Assembly: GCA_944325655.1 (NCBI GenBank)
Contig: CALVAW010000004.1
Location: 1-64,000, forward strand
Length of the DNA: 64,000 bases
Origin: Candidatus Gastranaerophilales bacterium
Lineage (GTDB): Bacteria > Cyanobacteriota > Vampirovibrionia > Gastranaerophilales > Gastranaerophilaceae
Direction: 5' to 3'
Positions 19,596-64,000 of the stretch are shown piece by piece (within the stretch, counting starts at the first letter, position 1; every line of letters starts with the position of its first letter). Under the pieces are notes generated by a model that did not search any database, was not told where the DNA came from, and was given only the letters and a program-made list of their open reading frames with translations. Both the position numbers and the translations under genes were made by a program.

Positions 19596-20210
19596 ATGGA
19601 TATTTGTGATGTTAAAAGAGTGAATTCGGTTTGTTTTGATGAAGAAGTTGAAAAAATTCTTTCTTCTCTTGAGAAAACACGTTGTGAATTTTGGAATTTA
19701 GACAGACCAAGTGCTAATTTTTTAAATATGCTTATAAAAATAAATAATTCCAAAAATGTATTGGAAATAGGTACTTCTAACGGATATAGCGGAATTTGGA
19801 TATTGGAAGCATTGAAAGAAACAAAAGGAAAATTTACAACTATTGAATTTTGGGAGAAAAGACAAAGGGTTGCAAGGAAAAATTTTGAAATATATAAAAA
19901 AGATGTTTTTATGGAACCTAAAATAGGTTCTGCGATTGTTGTTTTGCAGGATTTAGAAAATGAAATAAGAAGTTCAAAAAGAGAAAAATATGATTTTATA
20001 TTTATAGATGCAAATAAAAAAGAATATGTTGATTATTTTGAGTATGCGGATAAAATTCTTAAAATCGGCGGTATAATACTTGCCGATAATATTTTGACCC
20101 ATTATGAAAAAACTCTTCCTTATATTAATCTTTTGTTTGAAAATAAAAATTATCAATCTCAAATCCTTGATATAGGTGCAGGAATGATGATTTCAAGAAA
20201 GTTAAAATAA
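19596..20210 (+). CDS. O-methyltransferase, COG4122/class I
   Basis: 204 residues. SAM-dependent, Rossmann-like. VLEIGTSNGYSGIWILEAL is the SAM-binding motif I region (about residues 50-68). FTTIEFWEKRQRVARKNF, YDFIFIDANKKEYVDYF and GGIILADNILTHY match the metal-dependent O-methyltransferases of the caffeoyl-CoA/MdmC type, where the Asp and Asn would bind the metal. The substrate is unknown. The ATG lies 3 bases after the preceding stop, so the two are likely cotranscribed. Confidence 0.85.
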   Translation: MDICDVKRVNSVCFDEEVEKILSSLEKTRCEFWNLDRPSANFLNMLIKINNSKNVLEIGTSNGYSGIWILEALKETKGKFTTIEFWEKRQRVARKNFEIYKKDVFMEPKIGSAIVVLQDLENEIRSSKREKYDFIFIDANKKEYVDYFEYADKILKIGGIILADNILTHYEKTLPYINLLFENKNYQSQILDIGAGMMISRKLK

Positions 20211-20241
20211 AAAAACTTAAAACATTTTGTTTTAAGTTTTT
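20211..20241. terminator. Bidirectional terminator between O-methyltransferase and the small-peptide operon
   Basis: A perfect 13-bp stem AAAAACTTAAAAC with GTTTTAAGTTTTT around ATTTT. The A/T flanks serve convergent transcripts from both sides. Confidence 0.8.
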
Positions 20242-20269
20242 ATCCTCTTTTCGTCTTGTAGCTGCGCTC

Positions 20270-20410
20270 TTATGCATTAAATGCTGAAATTGCCATTGGT
20301 GTTTGAATTGGGTTGGATGATGAAATATAATTTATTGTCCATATAAACATAGTGCAAGAAATTAGCACAAGTATTATCAAAAGAAAATTGGTTAATTTAT
20401 TTTCCGTCAT
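20270..20410 (-). CDS. 46-residue single-pass membrane peptide
   Basis: ATG at 20410, TAA ending at 20270, with GAGGAC upstream. MTENKLTNF is followed by one hydrophobic helix (LLIILVLISCTMFIW, about residues 10-24) and a short polar tail ending in MAISAFNA. It begins 24 bases after the ETAG peptide gene on the same strand, so the two form a two-gene unit from one promoter. I do not recognise it. A helper, export or immunity role for the peptide is only a guess. The terminator at 20211-20241 follows. Confidence 0.55.
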   Translation of the reverse strand: MTENKLTNFLLIILVLISCTMFIWTINYISSSNPIQTPMAISAFNA

Positions 20411-20434: not shown

Positions 20435-20608
20435 TTATGCCATTGCAGAAAATGAGCCAGATGAGCCGGCACTTGGAGTTGAACAAGCAATTGAACCAGC
20501 TGTTTCTGTTGAAAAAATAGAAGGTGCAGGCGTTGATTGTACTGCAGGTGAGCCTGCTGTTTCCGGTTTTGAATTATGACCTTGTGAAAGACTTACTGAA
20601 TTAAACAT
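20435..20608 (-). CDS. 57-residue ETAG-repeat small peptide
   Basis: ATG 20608 with AAGGAGAT 5 bases upstream and a good promoter. A short polar leader (MFNSVSLSQGHNSKP) is followed by two modules: ETAGSPAVQSTPAPSIF, then ETAGSIAC and a Ser/Gly/Ala tail ending FSAMA. A paralogue at 63625-63894 has the same module order and the same kind of end (ETAGTIAC, Ser/Gly-rich, YSALG). There is no signal peptide or membrane helix. Short leader, repeated cores with Ser/Thr and one Cys, and a paralogue elsewhere recall ribosomal peptide precursors, but no modifying enzyme is adjacent. It could also be a small secreted structural peptide. Confidence 0.7.
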   Translation of the reverse strand: MFNSVSLSQGHNSKPETAGSPAVQSTPAPSIFSTETAGSIACSTPSAGSSGSFSAMA

Positions 20609-20646
20609 TTTTATCTCCTTGAATTTTATATATCTTGTATCCTATA

Positions 20647-20675
20647 CTTATATAAAAACGATATAAAATGTTCAA
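20647..20675 (-). promoter_or_regulatory. Promoter for the ETAG peptide pair
   Basis: On the minus strand TTGAAC (20675-20670) and TATAAG (20652-20647) are 17 bases apart. Transcription would start about 30 bases before the AAGGAGAT ribosome site of the 57-residue peptide. Confidence 0.6.
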
Positions 20676-20720
20676 TTTCAAGTATAATTTTTTTTGTTAC
20701 ATATCTTAATAAGTTATTGT

Positions 20721-23021
20721 TTAATAAAATAGCAGGCTTGTAAGTCTTTGGTAATCAGTATCATTTAAAGCTCTGTATTTTTTCTTTAATATTGTTAAAA
20801 CTTTTAAGTTGTATGACAATGTATCTTGAATATTTTTTAATTCTGTTCTAATTTCTGAAATTTTTCTGATTTTTTCTTGTGTTTCTATTTCTGATTTTAG
20901 TTTTTGGTATAATTGTTTGGTTTCTTCAAAGCTTGCGTTGGAATATTTTTCTCTATATGTTTGATTTAATTTTTCAATTTCTTCACTTGTTTTTTCAATT
21001 TCTTTTAATCTTGCTAAAATTAATTGTTCTTCTTCTTGATTGTCTGATAAAGTATTAAGATTGATAAAATATCTTACCGAGCTTTTTTTTGAGAGCTCAT
21101 CAAGTTTGCTTTCGATTTCTTTTTGCGCCATTCTTGAAATTTCAAATGCTGATTTTGGAGGAATAGTTGAATTTTTTGATTTGAAATATTCCTCAAGTTG
21201 AACTGCTGCTTCAAATAGTTCTGCATAGTGTTTATATTCTTTGTAATCTTCTTTTTGTTTGTCTTTATCTTCGGTATTTATTTCTCCTCTTTCAAGAATT
21301 GTTTTGTTTTCTTGTTCAAGTCTTTCATTTTCTTGTCTTATTTCCGATAATCTTTCTTCAAGCATTGGTTTGTCAAAAATACAATCTTTAAGATTTTCTA
21401 TTTGCGATAAAGCTTCTTCCATTTCGCTAATGAGTGTTTGAAGTTCTTCCAGTGTTTGTTTGGTTGGAAGGTTCGAGCTAATCATATCTTCTAATATTTC
21501 TTTTTTTTGGTTAAGATTTTTTATTTCCGCTTCTAAAGATTCTATTTGTGTTAAAAGTTGTGTAATTTTGTAATCGTAGCGGCTTAATTTTTTTAATTGC
21601 AGAGTTTTATTCAAAGTTTGAATTTCATTTTCAATTTGAGCTGCTTGATATTCATCAGTAGTATTATCAAGAAGCATTTCAAGTTCTGTTATTTTTGTCA
21701 GGGCGTCTAAGCATTGTTGTTTTTCATTTTGATTGGTTTCAAGCTGTTCTTTTAAGCTTTGGATTTGAAGTTTAAGTTTTTTTATTTTTTCTGTTACAAT
21801 TTGATGCTGAGAAATATTTTCAAATTGTGGATTTTTTTCAAGTGCAGATACTTCTCTTTTTAGAATTTTGATTTTTTCAATCATTTCTCCTATTTTATGG
21901 CTTATTTTTTCAATTTCAAATTCTCTTCTTGCAAATATATCTTGCAGTTTTTTATTGTTTGTAGAGGGCGGTTCCGTGAGTTTAATTTTGCCTTTACTTA
22001 TTCTTGATATTGTTTCTATAATTTCTTTTATATAACTTTTATATTTAGGGTTTAAATCACCTTTATCTAAAGCTTTTTGTACGTCTTCCAGATATCTTTG
22101 AAGACCTTCTTGTAAATTTTCTTTATCTTCCATCCATTCTTCAAATAAAATATTTCCTTTTGCAGTGTTGCAACTAGCACAGTCGCAAATATAATTATCT
22201 GTTCTGCTGGTTCCCTGTTTTGATTTTGGGATTAGATGTTCTGTGCTGGGTACGGATTCAATAACTAATTTTCCTGCAATTTCTTTTGGTGTTCTTGAAG
22301 GATCTGAGTACTTAACAAAAAAAGCGCTTATTTCTTTGTTTGATGTTGGTATTTTGCTTGCTATATATGAAAGTTGCCTTTTAATTTCGGAGTTTGATAT
22401 TAAAGATGTGATATCGTCAATAAATTCTTTTCTTTTAAATTTTTTGTTCGTTTTTCCTATTGCATCTTGTTTGTGTTTGTATAAAGCCGAGAGAATTAAA
22501 GCTTTTTGTTCATCATTTATTTCGGGGTTGTTTTTTATAAAGTTTTCAATTTCATCAAATACGATTAACTGCTTTTCAATAAGTTCTCCAAGATTTGATT
22601 CTCCTGCAATGCGCACAAGTTCAGCAATGTTCAAGGTAGGGTATTTAAGAGCAAGTTCTTTTAGCATATCAACAATTTTTTGTTTTTGCGGCCTATATAT
22701 AGTTCTATGTCTATTATTTAGAGGGTCTTTTATAAAAACAGTTTCATCTTCATATTTTTCAAGAGCATCTTTTAGTTCTTGTCCTTTTTTGCTTGCAATA
22801 TCATTTGCAAAAGCCATTTGTTCTTCATCGTTTAACATTAAAAGTCCGCAAACGGGACAGTGAAGATTGGGGATATTTCTTACTTCAAAATTGTTTTCAG
22901 TGCAGCGAAAAGCTCCAAAATTTATTTTATTGTTTATAGGAATATTTTGGTTTGAATTTATCTGATTTTTGCATTTATATCTATGCATGTTGTATTTTGG
23001 AATTTGAAAATTTATTTTCAT
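20721..23021 (-). CDS. HNH-type nuclease domain with long coiled coil and N-terminal tag
   Basis: 766 residues. Residues 1-32 form an Asn/basic tag ending in INFGAF (33-38). C55-x2-C58 (CPVCG) is a probable zinc ligand pair. The HNH-like core is at about 259-290: TEHLIPKSKQG with the catalytic-type His262, Asn276, then C281-x2-C284-N-x2-K. Residues 340-760 are almost all coiled coil, with heptads rich in Glu, Lys, Leu and Gln. This fits an HNH endonuclease fused to an SMC/Rad50-like rod without an ATPase head. Its ATG overlaps the stop of the helicase gene (ATGA), so the two are translationally coupled. The target is unknown. Confidence 0.7.
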   Translation of the reverse strand: MKINFQIPKYNMHRYKCKNQINSNQNIPINNKINFGAFRCTENNFEVRNIPNLHCPVCGLLMLNDEEQMAFANDIASKKGQELKDALEKYEDETVFIKDPLNNRHRTIYRPQKQKIVDMLKELALKYPTLNIAELVRIAGESNLGELIEKQLIVFDEIENFIKNNPEINDEQKALILSALYKHKQDAIGKTNKKFKRKEFIDDITSLISNSEIKRQLSYIASKIPTSNKEISAFFVKYSDPSRTPKEIAGKLVIESVPSTEHLIPKSKQGTSRTDNYICDCASCNTAKGNILFEEWMEDKENLQEGLQRYLEDVQKALDKGDLNPKYKSYIKEIIETISRISKGKIKLTEPPSTNNKKLQDIFARREFEIEKISHKIGEMIEKIKILKREVSALEKNPQFENISQHQIVTEKIKKLKLQIQSLKEQLETNQNEKQQCLDALTKITELEMLLDNTTDEYQAAQIENEIQTLNKTLQLKKLSRYDYKITQLLTQIESLEAEIKNLNQKKEILEDMISSNLPTKQTLEELQTLISEMEEALSQIENLKDCIFDKPMLEERLSEIRQENERLEQENKTILERGEINTEDKDKQKEDYKEYKHYAELFEAAVQLEEYFKSKNSTIPPKSAFEISRMAQKEIESKLDELSKKSSVRYFINLNTLSDNQEEEQLILARLKEIEKTSEEIEKLNQTYREKYSNASFEETKQLYQKLKSEIETQEKIRKISEIRTELKNIQDTLSYNLKVLTILKKKYRALNDTDYQRLTSLLFY

Positions 23022-25729
23022 AGAAATATCTCGCTGCCTATTGAATCTTTTTCACTTAAAAGAAGCGCATCTTGTACATTTTCTTTTAGTTTTCGGTAAT
23101 AATTTTGGTTAGGATAAATTTCAGGATGTTTTAGGGCAAAATCGCATATATTATTAATTTGCTTAAGGACAGTGATTGTATTGGTAAGTATTTTATAAAT
23201 ATTGCCTTCGTAGCTTTTTCTTGAGTATTCTTTTGATTTGAAATCAGTATTTTGTGTATCTTGTAAATTTGTTATGAGTTGTCTAAAATTATCGGTTGAA
23301 TTATCTGATATTTCATTCAGATGGGCCCAAAGGTATGCAACCAGTCCTGAGAAGCTGTCTGAAATAACTATATCTTCCGGTTTTAATTTACTTTCGTAGA
23401 AGCTTTTTATAACTTTGCTTTCCAATTTTTTATATGCTTCTCTTATCTTTTCAAAATCGAACTTTTGTTCAAAATAGCTTGCTTCATCTTGAAGTTGTGA
23501 GGCGAATTTTTGGGAGATAATTTCTTCCATTTCTTCTTTTTCTTTTTGTGGTGAAGAACCTGCTATATATCCTACCATTTGACATAATTGTGCTGCATTT
23601 AACCCGCTGAATTTTTCTTCATATATTAAGCTTGACAGCATAATCGGGTTTAAACCTTGGCATAATTTTAATATTTTTCCTTTTGGAGTCAGGGAAATTT
23701 CACCCTGATTATTTTTTATTATATATTCGTGTTTTAACATTACATTTTGGTAATTAACAAATTGATTATAGAGCGTCCTTTTTGTTTTTTCGGGTTCTTT
23801 TGAGATATATACGCTAAAAGATTTTTCAATTAATTGTTTAATGTTTTCTAATGATGAATTATCTTCAAAATATTGCGCAAGTATTTGCCAATCCGGCTCA
23901 AAGAAACTCCTTAATTTATCAGGAGGTGAAATTATATAGTTATATGCTGTTTCAAGTTCGTCGGGTCTTTTTGATTCTTGTGATTTTTTATCAGATGATT
24001 TTTTCTTCGATTTTACTTTTTTAGTGTCTTCTATTGACGGTTTCAGATTATAGAAAACAACGTGTCCCAGAGAATCTATGCCTCTTCTGCCTGCCCTGCC
24101 TGTCATTTGATGAAATTCGTTTGCGCTTATTGTTTCGTATTCAACCTTTTTAGTTGCAGCATCATATTTTTGATAAGTTATATCCGAGAGAACAACGGTT
24201 TTTGCGGGCATATTGATTCCGGTAGAAAGGGTTGAAGTTGCGACAACTACTTTTAATAGTTTTTTAGAAAACAGGTCTTCAATCAATTTTTTGTATTGTG
24301 GTGTAATGCCGCTATGGTGAAATGCAAAGCCCGAAAGGAGCATTTTTTCGTTAAAGCTTTTACCGAGATATATGCCTTTTTTCTTATATTCTTCAATTGT
24401 AGCTTTTATTTTCTCTTTTTCTTCTTTTGTTGTAAGGTCAAGTTCAGCGTTTAGTAAACTATAGGCTGTTTGTGAGCATTTTCTTTTAGAAAGCTTAAAA
24501 ATTATGGCCGGAAGCATATTTTTAATTTCTAAATCTTTCACCAAAGCGGGATAATTATCTTCTGTATCTTTTAATTTTATTTTGTTAATATGTTCGCTGC
24601 CGATTTCTGACAAAAATTGTATAATTGATTCTTTTTGTTCGGGTGTAAAATTGGGGTATATTGTATCTAAAAATTCTGTAAAGGTACTTTCGCTGCATTT
24701 TTTTAAACCTTCTGCAGCTTGTTTTAGCTCTTGAGCAGTTTGAATATATTCTTCCTGAGTCATTTCATAGTAATTATCTTTTTCATTTTTTGTTTTAAAT
24801 ATGACTTCCAATGCTCTTTTTTGTCTGTTCGTAAGATGTTTAGGGTCCATTGACTCAAGATTTATCATGCTTCTTTTTACTTTTATTAATTTGCCTTTTT
24901 GTGCTTCAATGCCTTTTTCCTGTTGATAAAGATGCCAGATAAGCGGAACAAATCTTTCTTCAGGTTTTATTTCAATTTTTGCAACGTTTCTTTCTGAATT
25001 TAAAGATTGTATCCAGTTGGCAAACGTAGTACTGTTTCCTATAGTTGCCGATAAGCAAAGAATTTGTGTTTTATCCAGAGGAGTTTTAATGATTGAATAT
25101 TCCCAAATTTTTCCTCTGTCTTGGTCTGAGATGTTGTGAGCTTCATCAAAAATTACAGTACCTATGTTTTTTGAATTTTGTTTTAAATCAGCTGTTTGGT
25201 TATTATAAATTTCTGTTGTCATAATTTGAATAGGGGCGGTCGTATTGAATTTTATATCCCCTGTTAAAATGCCGACATTTTCTTTTCCGTATATTGTTTT
25301 AAATTCTCTGTATTTATCATTCGCCAAAGCTTTTTGCGGAACTGTATAAATTGTTTTTTTGCCGTTTTTAAGGTTTAAAGTTATTGCATAATGCGCTACA
25401 GCAGTTTTTCCGGTGCCTGTAGGTGCGCAAAAAACGACAGAATCTCCGGCATATAGTCTTTTGGAACATTCAAGCTGATATTTGTCGGGTTTCAATTGGT
25501 ACATTGAACCGTTTTTTAGTTTAACTTGCGGCAGTTGAAAATAATTTTCATCTACTGTTTGTTGAAAACCCGGCAATTCCGTGCTTTGAAAATAACCTCT
25601 GAAATTTATATTTTTTGAATATATTGATTTATAATTTTCAGGGTAATTTAAGGAAGTGTTTTGCGGGCTTTTTGAATATGTTTTAGCTTTTCGTATATAT
25701 AAATTTATATTTTGAATAGGTGTAATCAT
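23018..25729 (-). CDS. Ski2-like superfamily 2 helicase with N-terminal tag
   Basis: 903 residues. An N-terminal tag ends in INFRGYF (41-47). The helicase core follows: Walker A APTGTGKT (K108), TVPQKALANDKY (Ia), DEAH (195-198), LSATIGN (III), FAFHHSGI, VVVATSTLSTGINMPA (V) and HQMTGRAGRRG (VI). These are the marks of Ski2/Mtr4/Hel308-type enzymes, which move 3' to 5' on RNA or DNA. A long insertion (about 270-440) and a C-terminal winged-helix-like part are unnamed. It is the first gene of a pair with the HNH protein. Helicases of this group occur in the Hachiman defence system (HamB), but no HamA-like gene is here. Confidence 0.8.
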   Translation of the reverse strand: MITPIQNINLYIRKAKTYSKSPQNTSLNYPENYKSIYSKNINFRGYFQSTELPGFQQTVDENYFQLPQVKLKNGSMYQLKPDKYQLECSKRLYAGDSVVFCAPTGTGKTAVAHYAITLNLKNGKKTIYTVPQKALANDKYREFKTIYGKENVGILTGDIKFNTTAPIQIMTTEIYNNQTADLKQNSKNIGTVIFDEAHNISDQDRGKIWEYSIIKTPLDKTQILCLSATIGNSTTFANWIQSLNSERNVAKIEIKPEERFVPLIWHLYQQEKGIEAQKGKLIKVKRSMINLESMDPKHLTNRQKRALEVIFKTKNEKDNYYEMTQEEYIQTAQELKQAAEGLKKCSESTFTEFLDTIYPNFTPEQKESIIQFLSEIGSEHINKIKLKDTEDNYPALVKDLEIKNMLPAIIFKLSKRKCSQTAYSLLNAELDLTTKEEKEKIKATIEEYKKKGIYLGKSFNEKMLLSGFAFHHSGITPQYKKLIEDLFSKKLLKVVVATSTLSTGINMPAKTVVLSDITYQKYDAATKKVEYETISANEFHQMTGRAGRRGIDSLGHVVFYNLKPSIEDTKKVKSKKKSSDKKSQESKRPDELETAYNYIISPPDKLRSFFEPDWQILAQYFEDNSSLENIKQLIEKSFSVYISKEPEKTKRTLYNQFVNYQNVMLKHEYIIKNNQGEISLTPKGKILKLCQGLNPIMLSSLIYEEKFSGLNAAQLCQMVGYIAGSSPQKEKEEMEEIISQKFASQLQDEASYFEQKFDFEKIREAYKKLESKVIKSFYESKLKPEDIVISDSFSGLVAYLWAHLNEISDNSTDNFRQLITNLQDTQNTDFKSKEYSRKSYEGNIYKILTNTITVLKQINNICDFALKHPEIYPNQNYYRKLKENVQDALLLSEKDSIGSEIFL

Positions 25730-26146: not shown

Positions 26147-27178
26147 TTATTTTAATTTATCTTTCCAATAATCTAAATAAGTTTCATTGCCATTTTTTTG
26201 AGCTAAAGCTTTCCTTGTGGCATCCGGCGCTACTTCAATTAAGACTTCCAATTTATTTATGTCACATATAAAAAAGCGTGGATAAATAGGCAATAATCCT
26301 TCATTATTTTTAATTAATAATACTTTTTGGAAGATTTTTTCAGTATCTTCTCCCAGAACCTTTTTATAAGCATTAATTTCATACATACCTGCGCAATGTA
26401 TGGGTGTGTCGCCATTGTTATCTTTTATTGTTAAAACATTTGCAAAAGTTTCAAGTGCTTTATCGCCCAGCGCTTCTTTAAATGCAATAATTCTATCTGC
26501 ATCTGCATAGTGTAGAGGTGTTTTCTTGTATTTATCTTGAATTAATAGAACACTTGCAAAAATTTCAGGCGCTCTATCACCCAGCGCTTCTTTAAGTGCA
26601 ATAATTTTGTTTGCGCTTGCATAATGCAGAGGCGTCGTATTATCATCTTTACTTTGTATTGTTAAAACACTTGCAAAAATTTCAGGCGCTCTATCACCCA
26701 GAGCTTCTTTAAGTGCATTAATTTCGGGTGCCTCTGCACAATATACAGACGTTCTTCCGTTTTTATCCTGCATTATTGCAGCCTTTGCAAAAACTTCAGG
26801 TGATTTTTCACCTAATATTTCTGCAAAAGCTTCAATTTGTTTACTATTTGACAAATTAAGAATGGGAATATCACGTTCTTCAAGTAAAAAGGCTTCTAAG
26901 TCATTTGGATTTGAGGCAAAAACTTTTTTAATATCTTCAACAGATGTTTTACCTGAAAAATCATCTTTAACTTTTGTTAATTTTTCTGTTTCATTTATAA
27001 AATTTAAAACCTCTTCTTTTCCTTTAAAAGATATTTTTGAATAAGCTTTTAATTGATTTAATGTAGGAGTTGTTAAATTTCGACCGATAACAGAAGGTTT
27101 CGGATTATTCATTTTATTCTTTTTAAAAGAATTTCTAACATTGTAGTAACTTATTTTACTTATTGCATCTACTTTCAT
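26147..27178 (-). CDS. Ankyrin-like repeat protein with N-terminal I-x-F-x-G tag
   Basis: 343 residues. The tag (1-53) starts MKVDAISKIS and ends ISFKG (49-53). From about 120 there are at least four 36-39 residue repeats of the type ALKEALGDRAPEIFASVL, then a linker and TPLHYA. The TPLHYA turn is the ankyrin signature; the helix part (GDRAPEIF) is unusual. There is no signal peptide. The protein probably mediates protein-protein contacts. AAGGGAGAT precedes the ATG. It follows the helicase-HNH area but is separated from it by two tRNAs. Confidence 0.75.
   Translation of the reverse strand: MKVDAISKISYYNVRNSFKKNKMNNPKPSVIGRNLTTPTLNQLKAYSKISFKGKEEVLNFINETEKLTKVKDDFSGKTSVEDIKKVFASNPNDLEAFLLEERDIPILNLSNSKQIEAFAEILGEKSPEVFAKAAIMQDKNGRTSVYCAEAPEINALKEALGDRAPEIFASVLTIQSKDDNTTPLHYASANKIIALKEALGDRAPEIFASVLLIQDKYKKTPLHYADADRIIAFKEALGDKALETFANVLTIKDNNGDTPIHCAGMYEINAYKKVLGEDTEKIFQKVLLIKNNEGLLPIYPRFFICDINKLEVLIEVAPDATRKALAQKNGNETYLDYWKDKLK
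26549..26730. repeat. Near-identical tandem DNA repeat inside the ankyrin-like gene
   Basis: Two copies of a segment over 50 bp long, 117 bp apart (from about 26549 and 26666), are almost identical; both carry CACTTGCAAAAATTTCAGG followed by the same GCGCTCTATCACCCAG. 117 bp is 39 codons, one protein repeat. Neighbouring repeats are more diverged, which points to a recent duplication or gene conversion. Confidence 0.75.
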
Positions 27179-55814: not shown

Positions 55815-56891
55815 TTAAGCAAATACTTTAAATGTTTTTTCAACGTTATCCTTAATAACTTGCTCAACGGATTCCATTTCCGTTTTAATTGCATTTTGTT
55901 CGGTATCTAATTGTTGTAATCTTAATTCAAGTTGTTGGTCTTGTTGTTGAACTATTTCTGTTTGAGCATTGATATCCGAAATAGTTTTTTCATATATTGC
56001 TTTTTCATATTCATAATCATTATAGGCATCATCATAGGCATTTTGATCCATTTCTTGAACGGTAGCCAAAGTGAAGGTCATTCCTTTTAAATCATTTGGA
56101 TACGAATCGTCGTCTGCTATGACAATCGAGCTGTATCTTCCTGTGCTTGATTGTTCCACTGTAGCAGTAACCTGAGTTGTTACTTCTTTTGAATATGTGT
56201 AAGGATATAGAATATTATATTTTCCTATTTGCGGATCGTCAGATACCATATCTAACAATTGTTCTTCTGTCATAAAGTGATTTTTTCCTTGGGAATCTTG
56301 GAAGAAATAATATTGTGTATCTTTTTCGGTACAACATTTGTCATAACCTGTAAGATTTTTGTTTGCTTCCGCTTTATATATTTGATATTGATTAACGGAA
56401 AGTGAACCGTTTTCGCCTGTGTAAGCATTTGTCGAGCTTTCATCATATACAATAGAGGTTGTTGCTTTGTTACCTGTATCAATCAAAGGGATTGTGTATA
56501 TATTGTATGTTTTGCCTTCATCTGTTTCTTCCGTTTTTTTGGTAACTGCGCCAAGGCTGTATGATGTATTTTTTGAATCCATATATTCTTGTTTGCTTGA
56601 AAGAGTTACTATGTATTCGTTTTCTCTGTTATATGTTTTTGTCATGCTTGAAATTGTGTAATCTTCAGATGCATAAGAGCTCGAAGAATTTTCAAGTACA
56701 TAACTTGTTTTGTAGAAATCTGAGGTTGAAGGCGGAGTTGGCACTGTTAAATCCATCATTTGGTTGTACAAGTTAGCACTTTCATTTGACAAAGCTGTTC
56801 TTTGTTGGTTAATTTGCTGACCTTGGTATTCAACATTACTTTTTCTTGCCGTTAAACCCAGAAACCTTGCCTGACTGGCTGCCATACCCAT
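55815..56891 (-). CDS. Unknown protein in the probable flagellar regulon
   Basis: 358 residues from ATG 56891, chosen because GGAGG lies 11 bases upstream; ATG 56900 and 56909 are also possible. The N-terminus, ASQARFLGLTARKSNVEYQG followed by QQINQQRTALSNESANLYNQ, is helical and looks like the start of a flagellar axial or hook-associated protein, but I cannot assign it. The middle is Tyr/Ser/Thr-rich; the last 80 residues are a Gln/Glu-rich coiled coil. No signal peptide. A sigma-28-like -35 box (TAAAGTTT) is upstream. It may be exported through the flagellar gate. Confidence 0.6.
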   Translation of the reverse strand: MGMAASQARFLGLTARKSNVEYQGQQINQQRTALSNESANLYNQMMDLTVPTPPSTSDFYKTSYVLENSSSSYASEDYTISSMTKTYNRENEYIVTLSSKQEYMDSKNTSYSLGAVTKKTEETDEGKTYNIYTIPLIDTGNKATTSIVYDESSTNAYTGENGSLSVNQYQIYKAEANKNLTGYDKCCTEKDTQYYFFQDSQGKNHFMTEEQLLDMVSDDPQIGKYNILYPYTYSKEVTTQVTATVEQSSTGRYSSIVIADDDSYPNDLKGMTFTLATVQEMDQNAYDDAYNDYEYEKAIYEKTISDINAQTEIVQQQDQQLELRLQQLDTEQNAIKTEMESVEQVIKDNVEKTFKVFA

Positions 56892-56927
56892 AACTGTCAT
56901 TGCCTCCATTGTTCATTCACATTAGTG

Positions 56928-57028: not shown

Positions 57029-57784
57029 ATGACACAATTATTTGGAAATATTCATTCTATAGAATCATGCGGCACTGTTGATGGTCCCGGTATTCGTCTC
57101 GTTGTTTTTTTACAGGGTTGTCCGATGCGTTGTTTATATTGTCATAATCCTGACAGCTGGGATTTTAATGTCAATAAAAAAATGTCATCTGAAGAAATAT
57201 TGGCTAAATATGATAGTGTAAAAGAGTTTTTAAAAAATGGCGGGATTACGGCTACAGGCGGAGAACCTCTGGCGCAGATTGATTTTGTTATTGATCTTTT
57301 CAGAAAAGCTAAGAATAAAAAAATTCATACCGTTCTTGATACTTCGGGAGTTACATTTAATAAAAACGATGTAAGAAAAATGGATGAATTAATGAAGTAT
57401 ACTGATTTGGTCATGCTTGATATTAAACATATTGATCCTATTCAACATAATAAATTAACAGGTCATCCTAATGAACAAATATTGGATTTTGCAAGATATT
57501 TATCTGATAAAAAAATTCCGGTTTGGATAAGACATGTGGTTGTTCCTTCTATTACTTATAATAAAGTGTACTTGACTCGTTTAGGTGAGTTTTTGGCAAC
57601 TTTGAACAACATCCAAGCTCTTGATGTTTTGCCTTATCATGATATGGCGGTAGCTAAGTATGAGAATTTAGGTAAAGAATATCCCCTAAAAGGGGTTCCT
57701 CCTTTAACAAAAGAACAAGCTATCGATGCCAGAAACATTATTTTAGATGCCATGAGAAATGCAAGAAAGAATATGGGAATTTAA
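57029..57784 (+). CDS. pflA: Pyruvate formate-lyase activating enzyme
   Basis: 251 residues from ATG 57029. Radical SAM enzyme that makes the glycyl radical on pyruvate formate-lyase. The iron-sulfur motif is GCPMRCLYCHNPDSW (C-x3-C-x2-C, about 30-37). TATGGEPLAQIDF, VMLDIKHIDP and WIRHVVVPSIT fit PflA. It is 10.4 kb from the split pfl operon and must act on the 80-residue radical domain. It overlaps flhB tail to tail by 4 bases. Confidence 0.94.
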   Translation: MTQLFGNIHSIESCGTVDGPGIRLVVFLQGCPMRCLYCHNPDSWDFNVNKKMSSEEILAKYDSVKEFLKNGGITATGGEPLAQIDFVIDLFRKAKNKKIHTVLDTSGVTFNKNDVRKMDELMKYTDLVMLDIKHIDPIQHNKLTGHPNEQILDFARYLSDKKIPVWIRHVVVPSITYNKVYLTRLGEFLATLNNIQALDVLPYHDMAVAKYENLGKEYPLKGVPPLTKEQAIDARNIILDAMRNARKNMGI

Positions 57785-58959
57785 TTTTCATTTTCGTTTT
57801 TGAATTTTTTTAAGGATTCTTCTTTTTTCTTTTGCATTTCTTTTTGTGTTTGTATATCGCCTTTTTCTTCTGCTGTTTTTTGAATAATTTCTTGTTCTTG
57901 TTTTGTTGTTTTCTTTAGTTTGTATACAAAAATTAGAATTTCAGCTATAGCTTTATATAAATCCGGTGGTATTTGCCTGTTTATATCAACAAGTCTGAAT
58001 AGCGCTCTTGCAACCGGAGGATTTTCTATGACGGGTATGTTATGTTCACGAGCAATTTCTTTAATTTTATGGGCGAACAATTCGGTTCCTTTTGCAACAA
58101 GCATGGGTGATTCCATTTTTTGTGCGTCATATTTAATTGCGCAAGCTATGTGAGTTGGATTTGTGACTACAAAATCACAAGTTGTAACCGCATCCATCAT
58201 TTTTTGTTGTAAAAGTTGTTGCCGTCTTTGTCTCAGAGCTGCTTTAACATTCGGGTCGCCTTCGGAGTTTTTGTATTCATCCTTAACTTCCTTGAATGAC
58301 ATTTTTTGATCTTGAAGAAATTTCCATTTGGTTACTCCATAGTCTGCTGCAGCTATTATCAGAAAAGCTATTCCTGCTTTTATAACGAAATCAAGCATTA
58401 GTGAACCAAATTGGATTAAAATTGCAAAATGATTATCTATTGCCGCAAGCATTAATATGTCTTGAAAGTGGTCTTTATAGACCATATAACCGATAATTCC
58501 CAAAATTATAACTTTTGCAATGTTTTTAAAAAGGTCAAAAAGGGTTTTTGGGCTCATCAGATTTTTAAAATATTTAACGGGGTTAAATTTTTCGGCATTA
58601 AATTCCATAGGTTTTGTTGTAAAAAGAGGACCTATTTGAATTAAATCTCCTAAAATACCTATAATTGAAGCAAGCACAAGTATGGGAAGAAGCATTAGAG
58701 CTGTAGGAACTATAGTTTTTGTAAACAGATATGCATAGCCTATTTCATCCAGATGTTTATTTGGTATTTGTTCGTATATAATCGTAAAGAGGGCTGTTAA
58801 TTGATTCCATATAAAGGGAGAAAGAGCATATATAGCGCTAAACATAACAATTATTGCAAGAGCGGTCGATAAATCTTTTGACTTTACAACCTGCCCGTCT
58901 TCTCTGGCCTTTCTTAGCTTTTGTTGACTTGCTTCAAATTGTTTATTTTCGTCACCCAT
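57781..58959 (-). CDS. flhB: Flagellar biosynthesis protein FlhB
   Basis: 392 residues. Export-gate switch protein in the inner membrane. A basic N-terminus (FEASQQKLRKAREDGQVVKS), four membrane helices (about 30-205) and a cytoplasmic domain with the self-cleavage site NPTH (VVTNPTHIACAIKYD), then IPVIENPPVARALFRLVDI. The C-terminal 40 residues are Lys/Glu/Gln-rich. SctU (virulence type III) has a similar fold; the flagellin and sigma-28 context favours FlhB. It starts 4 bases after the preceding minus-strand gene ends. Confidence 0.92.
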   Translation of the reverse strand: MGDENKQFEASQQKLRKAREDGQVVKSKDLSTALAIIVMFSAIYALSPFIWNQLTALFTIIYEQIPNKHLDEIGYAYLFTKTIVPTALMLLPILVLASIIGILGDLIQIGPLFTTKPMEFNAEKFNPVKYFKNLMSPKTLFDLFKNIAKVIILGIIGYMVYKDHFQDILMLAAIDNHFAILIQFGSLMLDFVIKAGIAFLIIAAADYGVTKWKFLQDQKMSFKEVKDEYKNSEGDPNVKAALRQRRQQLLQQKMMDAVTTCDFVVTNPTHIACAIKYDAQKMESPMLVAKGTELFAHKIKEIAREHNIPVIENPPVARALFRLVDINRQIPPDLYKAIAEILIFVYKLKKTTKQEQEIIQKTAEEKGDIQTQKEMQKKKEESLKKFKNENEN

Positions 58960-63316: not shown

Positions 63317-63541
63317 TTAGCAATTATAATGTGAACATTCTATATTTTCTTTGACTGAGAAAATAAAATATCCTATTGCACTTAATCCTACAACTAAGTA
63401 TATAATTCTTGAAGCAATTGACATATCGCCGAATAAAAATCCTACAAGGTCAAAATCAAATGCTCCGACCAGCCCCCAATTGAGTGCACCAATTAAAACA
63501 AGTGTGTAAGTTAGCCATTTAAAAATATTCATAGCGTTCAT
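63317..63541 (-). CDS. DUF378 small membrane protein
   Basis: 74 residues. Two membrane helices: WLTYTLVLIGALNWGLVGAF (about 9-28, with the family NWGLVG motif) and IIYLVVGLSAIGYFIFSV (about 46-63). The tail holds two Cys (ECSHYNC). The family is common and of unknown function. GGGAGA precedes the ATG. Confidence 0.88.
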   Translation of the reverse strand: MNAMNIFKWLTYTLVLIGALNWGLVGAFDFDLVGFLFGDMSIASRIIYLVVGLSAIGYFIFSVKENIECSHYNC

Positions 63542-63624: not shown

Positions 63625-63894
63625 TTATCCTAAAGCACTATATGAGCCGCCACTGCTGCTTGAAGATGTATTATTGCAAGCAATTGTGCCAGCTGTTTCT
63701 GTTTGAGCTGAAAATAAAGGAGAAGGAGTATTTTGCGCAATTGTGCCTGTGCTTTCCGTTTTTTCACCATCATTTTTTACATTAAATAACGGGGAAGGCG
63801 AATTTTGCGCAATTGTACCCGCTGTTTCAGGTGTTTCATTTGATTTTTTTTCCTGCATTGAGGTTTTTGAATTAAGGTTAAATGATGTATCCAT
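63625..63894 (-). CDS. 89-residue ETAG-repeat peptide, paralogue of the 20.4-kb peptide
   Basis: ATG 63894 is chosen because AAAGAGATAAAATG matches the start region of the 57-residue paralogue (AAGGAGATAAAAATG); ATG 63909 would add five residues. Leader MDTSFNLNSKTSMQEKKSNE, then three modules: ETAGTIAQNSPSPLF, ESTGTIAQNTPSPLF and ETAGTIAC followed by a Ser/Gly tail ending YSALG. No signal peptide. Repeated cores with one terminal Cys and Ser-rich end suggest a precursor peptide, but no maturation gene is visible within the window end. It could also be structural. Confidence 0.7.
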   Translation of the reverse strand: MDTSFNLNSKTSMQEKKSNETPETAGTIAQNSPSPLFNVKNDGEKTESTGTIAQNTPSPLFSAQTETAGTIACNNTSSSSSGGSYSALG

Positions 63895-64000
63895 TTTATC
63901 TCTTTCCATTCAAATAGTGTCCTTGAGATAAATTCCACAAAATTAAAAAATTAAACAACAATAATCTTACTTGTGTTTTTGTTTCTCCGGAAAGACGAAA

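What the first reader, a model, noticed from the sequence alone, without database searches (positions are those of the whole stretch)
20435..20608. New small-peptide family: ETAG modules with a conserved Ser/Gly tail
This 57-residue gene has a good promoter (TTGAAC, 17 bases, TATAAG) and a strong ribosome site, yet is short enough to be missed. It is built as leader, ETAG-S-P-A...PSIF, ETAGSIAC, Ser/Gly tail, FSAMA. The gene at 63625 shares module order, the single Cys after ETAG-x-IA, the tail composition and even the start region. Two unlinked copies of the same short design suggest a peptide family under selection. A precursor of a ribosomally made, modified peptide, or a small exported peptide, are the main options (inference).
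Basis: partly seen in the sequence, partly recalled or inferred. Interest (0 to 1): 0.8.

Follow-up and report, generated by a model that had tools for sequence, protein, structure and literature searches.

The report
New ETAG-repeat peptide family, gut bacteria
Two overlooked short genes in this gut-bacterium genome belong to a previously unnamed family of repeat-bearing small peptides found across nearly a whole family of non-photosynthetic cyanobacterial relatives, where they are switched on by a distinctive shared promoter and are often made together with a tiny membrane protein; what they do is still unknown.

Summary
Both ORFs are real genes: no stops or frameshifts in relatives, dN far below dS, and no such heptads expected by chance. 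They belong to a family confined to one family of Candidatus Gastranaerophilales. A strict ETAG[ST]hA DNA pattern hits 187/288 genomes (29/41 genera); the reversed control hits about 6. Members are leaderless, disordered, 50-145 aa, with 1-7 heptads and a Ser/Gly-rich tail ending in a small residue. No Pfam, NCBIfam, PHROGs or PDB match.

Three further findings: (1) In 10 genera the peptide is followed 16-120 nt later by a conserved 46-49 aa single-TM miniprotein. (2) Most copies share a rigid long promoter (TTAA-N4-TGTAACAAA-N13-GAAAT-N18-TTTATATA-TGTAAG) whose other targets are small helical or coiled-coil orphan proteins. (3) Nearly every sampled genome has an FHIPEP export gate, and many lack the flagellar class.

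The RiPP idea is disfavoured: YcaO is absent from 25/27 genus genomes including this one, no recurrent maturase neighbour was seen, and the Cys is not conserved. Best guess: a leaderless motif-repeat peptide working with a membrane miniprotein at the envelope, plausibly exported by the flagella-derived T3SS (mechanism inferred, about 35-40%).

The parts
20435..20608 (-). ETAG peptide, B-type copy, 57 aa (MFNSVSLSQGHNSKPETAGSPAVQSTPAPSIFSTETAGSIACSTPSAGSSGSFSAMA)
   Evidence: ORF; homologues; 26 of 27 promoter sites with up to 2 mismatches in 686 kb of contexts precede such genes
20270..20410 (-). 46-aa single-TM miniprotein (TM46), downstream partner of the B-type peptide
   Evidence: 24 nt after the peptide's stop; E<1e-3 in 10 genera; ETAG-like peptide upstream in 18 of 19 testable loci; dN/dS mostly 0.1-0.3; helix 2-32, pLDDT 82
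20642..20711 (-). conserved promoter of the bicistron: TTAAG-N4-TGTAACAAA-N13-GAAAT-N18-TTTATATAAG
   Evidence: exact match at 20651-20701, spacing 22 nt in 52 of 54, family-wide with zero in the reversed control, conserved beyond the searched positions
20205..20250 (-). AT-rich hairpin after the TM46 gene, candidate terminator (also reads on the plus strand)
   Evidence: fold -11.2 kcal/mol, z -4.2
63625..63909 (-). ETAG peptide, A-type copy, 94 aa, three heptads
   Evidence: orthologues at 63-67% identity in G008 and G015; dN 0.32, dS 1.3-1.5
63929..63959 (-). A-type upstream element GTTTAA...TTGTGGAATTTA, conserved before about 20 A-type genes in the genus
   Evidence: exact TTGTGGAATWTA occurs once in the window
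63317..63541 (-). DUF378 small membrane protein, next gene in the same direction after the A-type peptide
   Evidence: Pfam PF04070 E 1.1e-20; same order in several genus genomes (cluster c17)

Best explanation
The two ORFs are members of an undescribed family of leaderless, intrinsically disordered small proteins built around 1-7 copies of a short linear motif, E-[TAS]-[AGS]-G-[ST]-[ILVM]-A, with a Ser/Gly-rich tail and a short hydrophobic C-terminus ending in a small residue (Ala, Cys or Gly). The B-type copy is the first gene of a two-gene unit with a 46-aa single-pass membrane miniprotein, driven by a specific long promoter. Shown: family, selection at protein level, conserved bicistron, promoter and its regulon. 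Inferred: the heptads are repeated binding sites for one partner protein; the peptide works at the cell envelope with the miniprotein; and, since there is no Sec signal and its co-regulated genes look like leaderless helical export substrates, it is probably a substrate or accessory of the flagella-derived type III export machine that this bacterial family carries.
For: Family and distribution; background level outside the family. Protein-level selection: 198 synonymous against 42 non-synonymous codon differences between heptads within genes; dN well below dS. Bicistron. Promoter; 254/288 genomes have exact sites, reversed control 0. Regulon content: of 92 distinct exact sites, 43 precede ETAG peptides and 36 precede other short ORFs up to 160 aa, mostly orphan helical or coiled-coil proteins (no Pfam family above threshold for those tested). 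Export machine: FHIPEP in 287/288 genomes in two score classes, about 880 and 730 bits. The second operon has FliE, FliF/YscJ, FliH and FHIPEP, plus a FliI/YscN ATPase in g33; its FlhA scores below the flagellar cut-off (705.8 against 772.1) and below the SctV cut-off. No Sec signal, disordered.
Against: No direct evidence of export or of any partner for the heptad. The export-apparatus operons examined carry no copy of the same promoter within 3 mismatches (the one weak site in those loci is elsewhere). The family and the export machine are both near-universal here, so co-occurrence cannot discriminate. TM46 was not detected in many genera, so it cannot be strictly required. The A-type copies have another promoter and no TM46 (0 of 18). 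Other regulon members include gcvPB and a pilin-like gene, so the regulon is not only export substrates.
Confidence: 0.38

Rival explanations
1. RiPP precursor: the heptads are recognition or core repeats, and the Ser/Gly/Cys tail is modified by an enzyme encoded elsewhere and exported.
For: Repeated modules; Ser/Gly/Cys-rich tails in some genera resemble microcin-B17-like cores (from memory); 70 of 92 ORFs hold a Cys somewhere; a SPASM radical-SAM protein is present in 24/27 genus genomes.
Against: YcaO absent in 25/27 genus genomes including this one. SPASM absent in G013 and G021, which carry the family. No recurrent maturase-like neighbour in 40 contexts. No conserved leader/core split; the heptad is the conserved part and the tail drifts. 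The Cys is not conserved in this genus.
Confidence: 0.12
2. Bacteriocin-like pair: the ETAG peptide is secreted and the 46-aa TM protein gives self-immunity.
For: Gene order peptide then small TM protein, short intergenic gap.
Against: No double-glycine or Sec leader, not cationic (median net charge -2); near-universal and often syntenic inheritance rather than the patchy spread expected of bacteriocins; A-type copies lack TM46.
Confidence: 0.08
3. Cytoplasmic regulator or adaptor: the heptads dock a regulatory protein (protease adaptor, anti-sigma or chaperone client), and TM46 tethers it to the membrane.
For: Dedicated promoters, usually one or two genes per genome, disordered motif-repeat architecture; location next to the grpE-dnaJ operon in four genera.
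Against: No conserved folded partner gene beside it other than TM46 (the HNH/helicase genes recur only in genus g1); C-terminal ends vary in length and composition.
Confidence: 0.27
4. Surface or matrix structural peptide: heptads drive self-assembly (curlin-like), with the Ser/Gly tail as linker.
For: Repeats with similar motif, Ser/Gly/Ala-rich composition.
Against: Copy number of heptads often only 1-2, irregular spacing, no Sec signal, no curli-type export neighbour seen.
Confidence: 0.1

Closest known systems
Type III / flagellar export substrates (leaderless, disordered N-terminus)
   Same: No Sec signal, Ser/Asn-rich N-terminus, co-regulated with leaderless helical orphan proteins, family-wide export apparatus.
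   Different: No sequence match to any known substrate; secretion untested; no apparatus gene beside the peptides.
RiPP precursor peptides (multi-core or microcin-B17-like)
   Same: Short, repeated modules, Ser/Gly/(Cys)-rich tail.
   Different: No associated maturase found, Cys not conserved, motif rather than tail is the conserved part.
Small peptide plus single-TM miniprotein operons (bacteriocin/immunity pairs, type I toxin-like TM peptides)
   Same: Two short adjacent genes, second with one TM helix.
   Different: Conserved across genera, acidic disordered first gene with motif repeats, A-type copy without the TM partner.
Disordered proteins with repeated short linear motifs
   Same: Short conserved motif in variable number and spacing inside low-complexity linkers.
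   Different: The ETAG[ST]hA motif was not found in any paper searched, and the profile has no PDB match.

Membership tests
ETAG-repeat peptide family (defined here) | One or more heptads E-[TAS]-x-G-[ST]-h-A in a short Ser/Gly/Ala-rich leaderless ORF | tested here: met
ETAG-repeat peptide family (defined here) | One of two conserved upstream elements | tested here: met
   B-type at 20651-20701, A-type at 63929
YcaO-dependent RiPP (TOMM, microcin B17-like) | YcaO cyclodehydratase in the genome | tested here: not met
   absent in G000 and in 25/27 genus genomes
Radical-SAM RiPP | SPASM maturase with or near the precursor | tested here: inconclusive
   SPASM proteins in 24/27 genomes but on other contigs in this genome, and absent in two carriers; other radical-SAM classes not tested
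RiPP precursor (general) | Post-translational modification of a core peptide | not testable with these tools
   needs mass spectrometry
Lanthipeptide, lasso, graspetide precursors | LanM/LanC, B1/C or ATP-grasp enzyme with the precursor | not tested
Class II bacteriocin | Double-glycine or Sec leader and cationic mature peptide | tested here: not met
   no hydrophobic leader, median net charge -2; no double-glycine leader by eye
Type III export substrate | Secretion dependent on the export gate and ATPase | not testable with these tools
   the machine exists; secretion needs an experiment
Type III export substrate | Absence of a Sec signal and disordered N-terminus | tested here: met
   (necessary, far from sufficient)

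The most novel reading that the evidence does not exclude
Gastranaerophilaceae carry a flagella-derived, non-flagellar type III export system with its own regulon, marked by a 60-bp rigid promoter, of leaderless small proteins. The ETAG peptides are its most widespread product: motif-repeat peptides that dock on one dedicated receptor, often with a membrane miniprotein. This would be a new class of exported or envelope peptide in gut commensals.
Probability: 0.25. Interest if true: 0.85.

Novelty: new variant of a known kind. Interest (0 to 1): 0.62.

Why it matters
An unannotated protein family present in at least 32 of 41 sampled genera of a common gut lineage, with its own promoter class and a miniprotein partner, is likely part of that lineage's core biology. 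The promoter gives a handle on a whole regulon of orphan small proteins, and it bears on an open point: most Gastranaerophilales were reported to hold only a non-functional subset of flagellar genes (Soo et al. 2014, PMC4040986). That subset may be a separate, conserved export machine.

Tried and rejected
Chance repeat: rejected. DNA-level repeat duplication: rejected, codons differ synonymously between heptads. Phage origin: no match in phage records or viral contigs. Known families: none in Pfam, NCBIfam, PHROGs or PDB sequences. YcaO RiPP: rejected for this family. My first promoter patterns were off by one base and missed the window's own site; corrected. The alignment-wide genome-contig scan failed for lack of conserved columns; a closer subset gave organism names. 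AlphaFold on the single peptide sequence gave a low-confidence model without secondary structure. PDB searches with regulon proteins gave nothing. Papers: no mention of the motif.

Full report
What is there. The window lies in a 1.69-Mb genome; the closest named relatives are Candidatus Gastranaerophilales MAGs.

Is it a family? Yes. A search with the 94-aa protein finds matches in 22 of 28 genomes of the genus (the three weakest, in gyrase or flagellar genes, are chance). A 20-nt degenerate pattern for ET[AG]G[ST]hA hits 187 of 288 genomes in 29 of 41 genera of the family, while the same pattern reversed hits about six genomes. Outside the family the pattern falls to the level of the control, which rises in the large genomes there. 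A few pattern hits inside the family are chance (for example L091 and L160), so the count is slightly high. Reading the ORFs gives proteins of 50-145 aa (median 75) with 1-7 heptads, a Ser/Gly-rich tail and short C-termini such as SAMA, SAIA, SYSC, SSVC. Between heptads of one gene the codons differ 198 times synonymously and 42 times otherwise (the pattern itself limits which residues may vary). Orthologues have dN 0.12-0.36 and dS mostly 0.8-2. So selection acts on the protein. The Cys after the heptad is present in both window copies but in only 15 of 92 family ORFs.

The partner. In the B-type locus a 46-49 aa ORF with one TM helix follows in the same direction. A profile of it finds clear matches (E<1e-3) in 10 genera. 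In 18 of the 19 loci I could read, an ETAG-like peptide lies just upstream, including genera where the strict pattern had failed: EAAGTMA/ETLGTMA in g36, EEAGATIA in g3, degenerate forms in g37 and G002 (in g37 the match is loose, and I counted it on position, promoter and partner). In the window the pair is followed by an AT-rich hairpin. The A-type copy instead sits before a DUF378 membrane protein and tuf. Across 109 distinct ETAG ORFs, 38 had the TM miniprotein downstream, none of them A-type.

The promoter. Upstream of B-type genes is a rigid element: TGTWAC to GAAAT is 22 nt in 52 of 54 cases. In 686 kb of contexts, which were chosen around ETAG genes, 26 of 27 sites lie directly upstream of one. 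Across 288 genomes the exact pattern occurs in 254, typically 1-8 per genome, with zero matches of the reversed pattern. Positions that were not searched for are conserved at 82-100% (TNTNAA upstream, TATA..TGTAA downstream). Many of those sites are not before ETAG genes. Of 92 distinct sites read, 43 precede ETAG peptides (a sample enriched for them, since many loci were fetched for the peptide). The rest precede mainly 53-58 aa proteins, 100-150 aa helical or coiled-coil proteins and some larger ones, with no Pfam family above threshold among those tested. A-type genes have a different element, GTTTA...TTGTGGAAT, which resembles SigB-type promoters (from memory; not tested).

The export machine. 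FHIPEP is found in 287 of 288 genomes, in two score classes; genomes without the flagellar class (about 880 bits) have the other (about 730 bits). The second operon encodes FliE-like, FliF/YscJ, FliH and FlhA-like proteins, with a FliI/YscN ATPase adjacent in g33. Its FlhA falls below both the flagellar and the SctV equivalog cut-offs. Soo et al. 2014 (PMC4040986) reported that most Gastranaerophilales have a flagellar gene subset that would not build a flagellum; this operon is a candidate for that subset (inference). The window itself carries an FlhB/SctU gene at 57781-58959, 4.7 kb from the A-type peptide.

How it may work. Shown: disordered, leaderless, motif-repeat peptide; conserved bicistron; dedicated promoter. 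Inferred: the heptad is a docking motif, and the peptide acts at or beyond the membrane, possibly exported by the flagella-derived machine. I rate this at 0.38. The main rival is a cytoplasmic adaptor tethered by TM46 (0.27). RiPP (0.12) is disfavoured.

Known or new. No family library, PDB sequence or paper searched contains it. As a sequence family it is new. As a kind of thing (lineage-restricted small peptide operon, perhaps an export substrate) it is a new variant, so I did not call it categorically new.

Noticed in passing
window 57781-58959; L217-L222 (second FlhA operon): A second, apparently non-flagellar FliE-FliF-FliH-FlhA operon occurs in many genera of this family, including genomes lacking the flagellar FlhA class; its FlhA scores below both the flagellar and SctV cut-offs.
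   Followed up: partly
L175/L176, L178, L179, L180, L181, L188 and L243-L292: A family-wide regulon sharing the B-type promoter: about 55-aa helical proteins, 100-150-aa coiled-coil proteins, larger Ser/Gly-rich or coiled-coil proteins, gcvPB and one pilin-like gene.
   Followed up: partly
L093, L095, L096 (genus g24): The ETAG heptad also occurs once or twice near the N-terminus of a different, membrane-type protein with 'ISF-GG' and 'VNFKG' motifs, so the motif is used outside the small-peptide context.
   Followed up: no
window 20721-23021, 23018-25729, 26147-27178: HNH/coiled-coil protein, Ski2/Hel308-like helicase and ankyrin-like protein whose N-termini carry an 'INFGAF/INFRG/ISFKG' type motif; similar motifs appear at the start of other proteins in these genomes.
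   Followed up: no
G003:C3:56431-63874 (L210): Four tandem YcaO genes (open frames of 612-638 aa) in one genus genome; otherwise YcaO is nearly absent from the genus, so a separate YcaO cluster may exist there.
   Followed up: no
L115, L117, L124, L127: In several genera the ETAG gene is followed by a small GIY-YIG-like nuclease gene in the same direction, 76-88 nt downstream.
   Followed up: no
window 55815-56909: 364-aa orphan protein with a flagellin/needle-like N-terminal region (GMAASQARFLGLTARKSNVEYQGQQINQQRTAL) close to the second flhB; no Pfam or NCBIfam match.
   Followed up: partly
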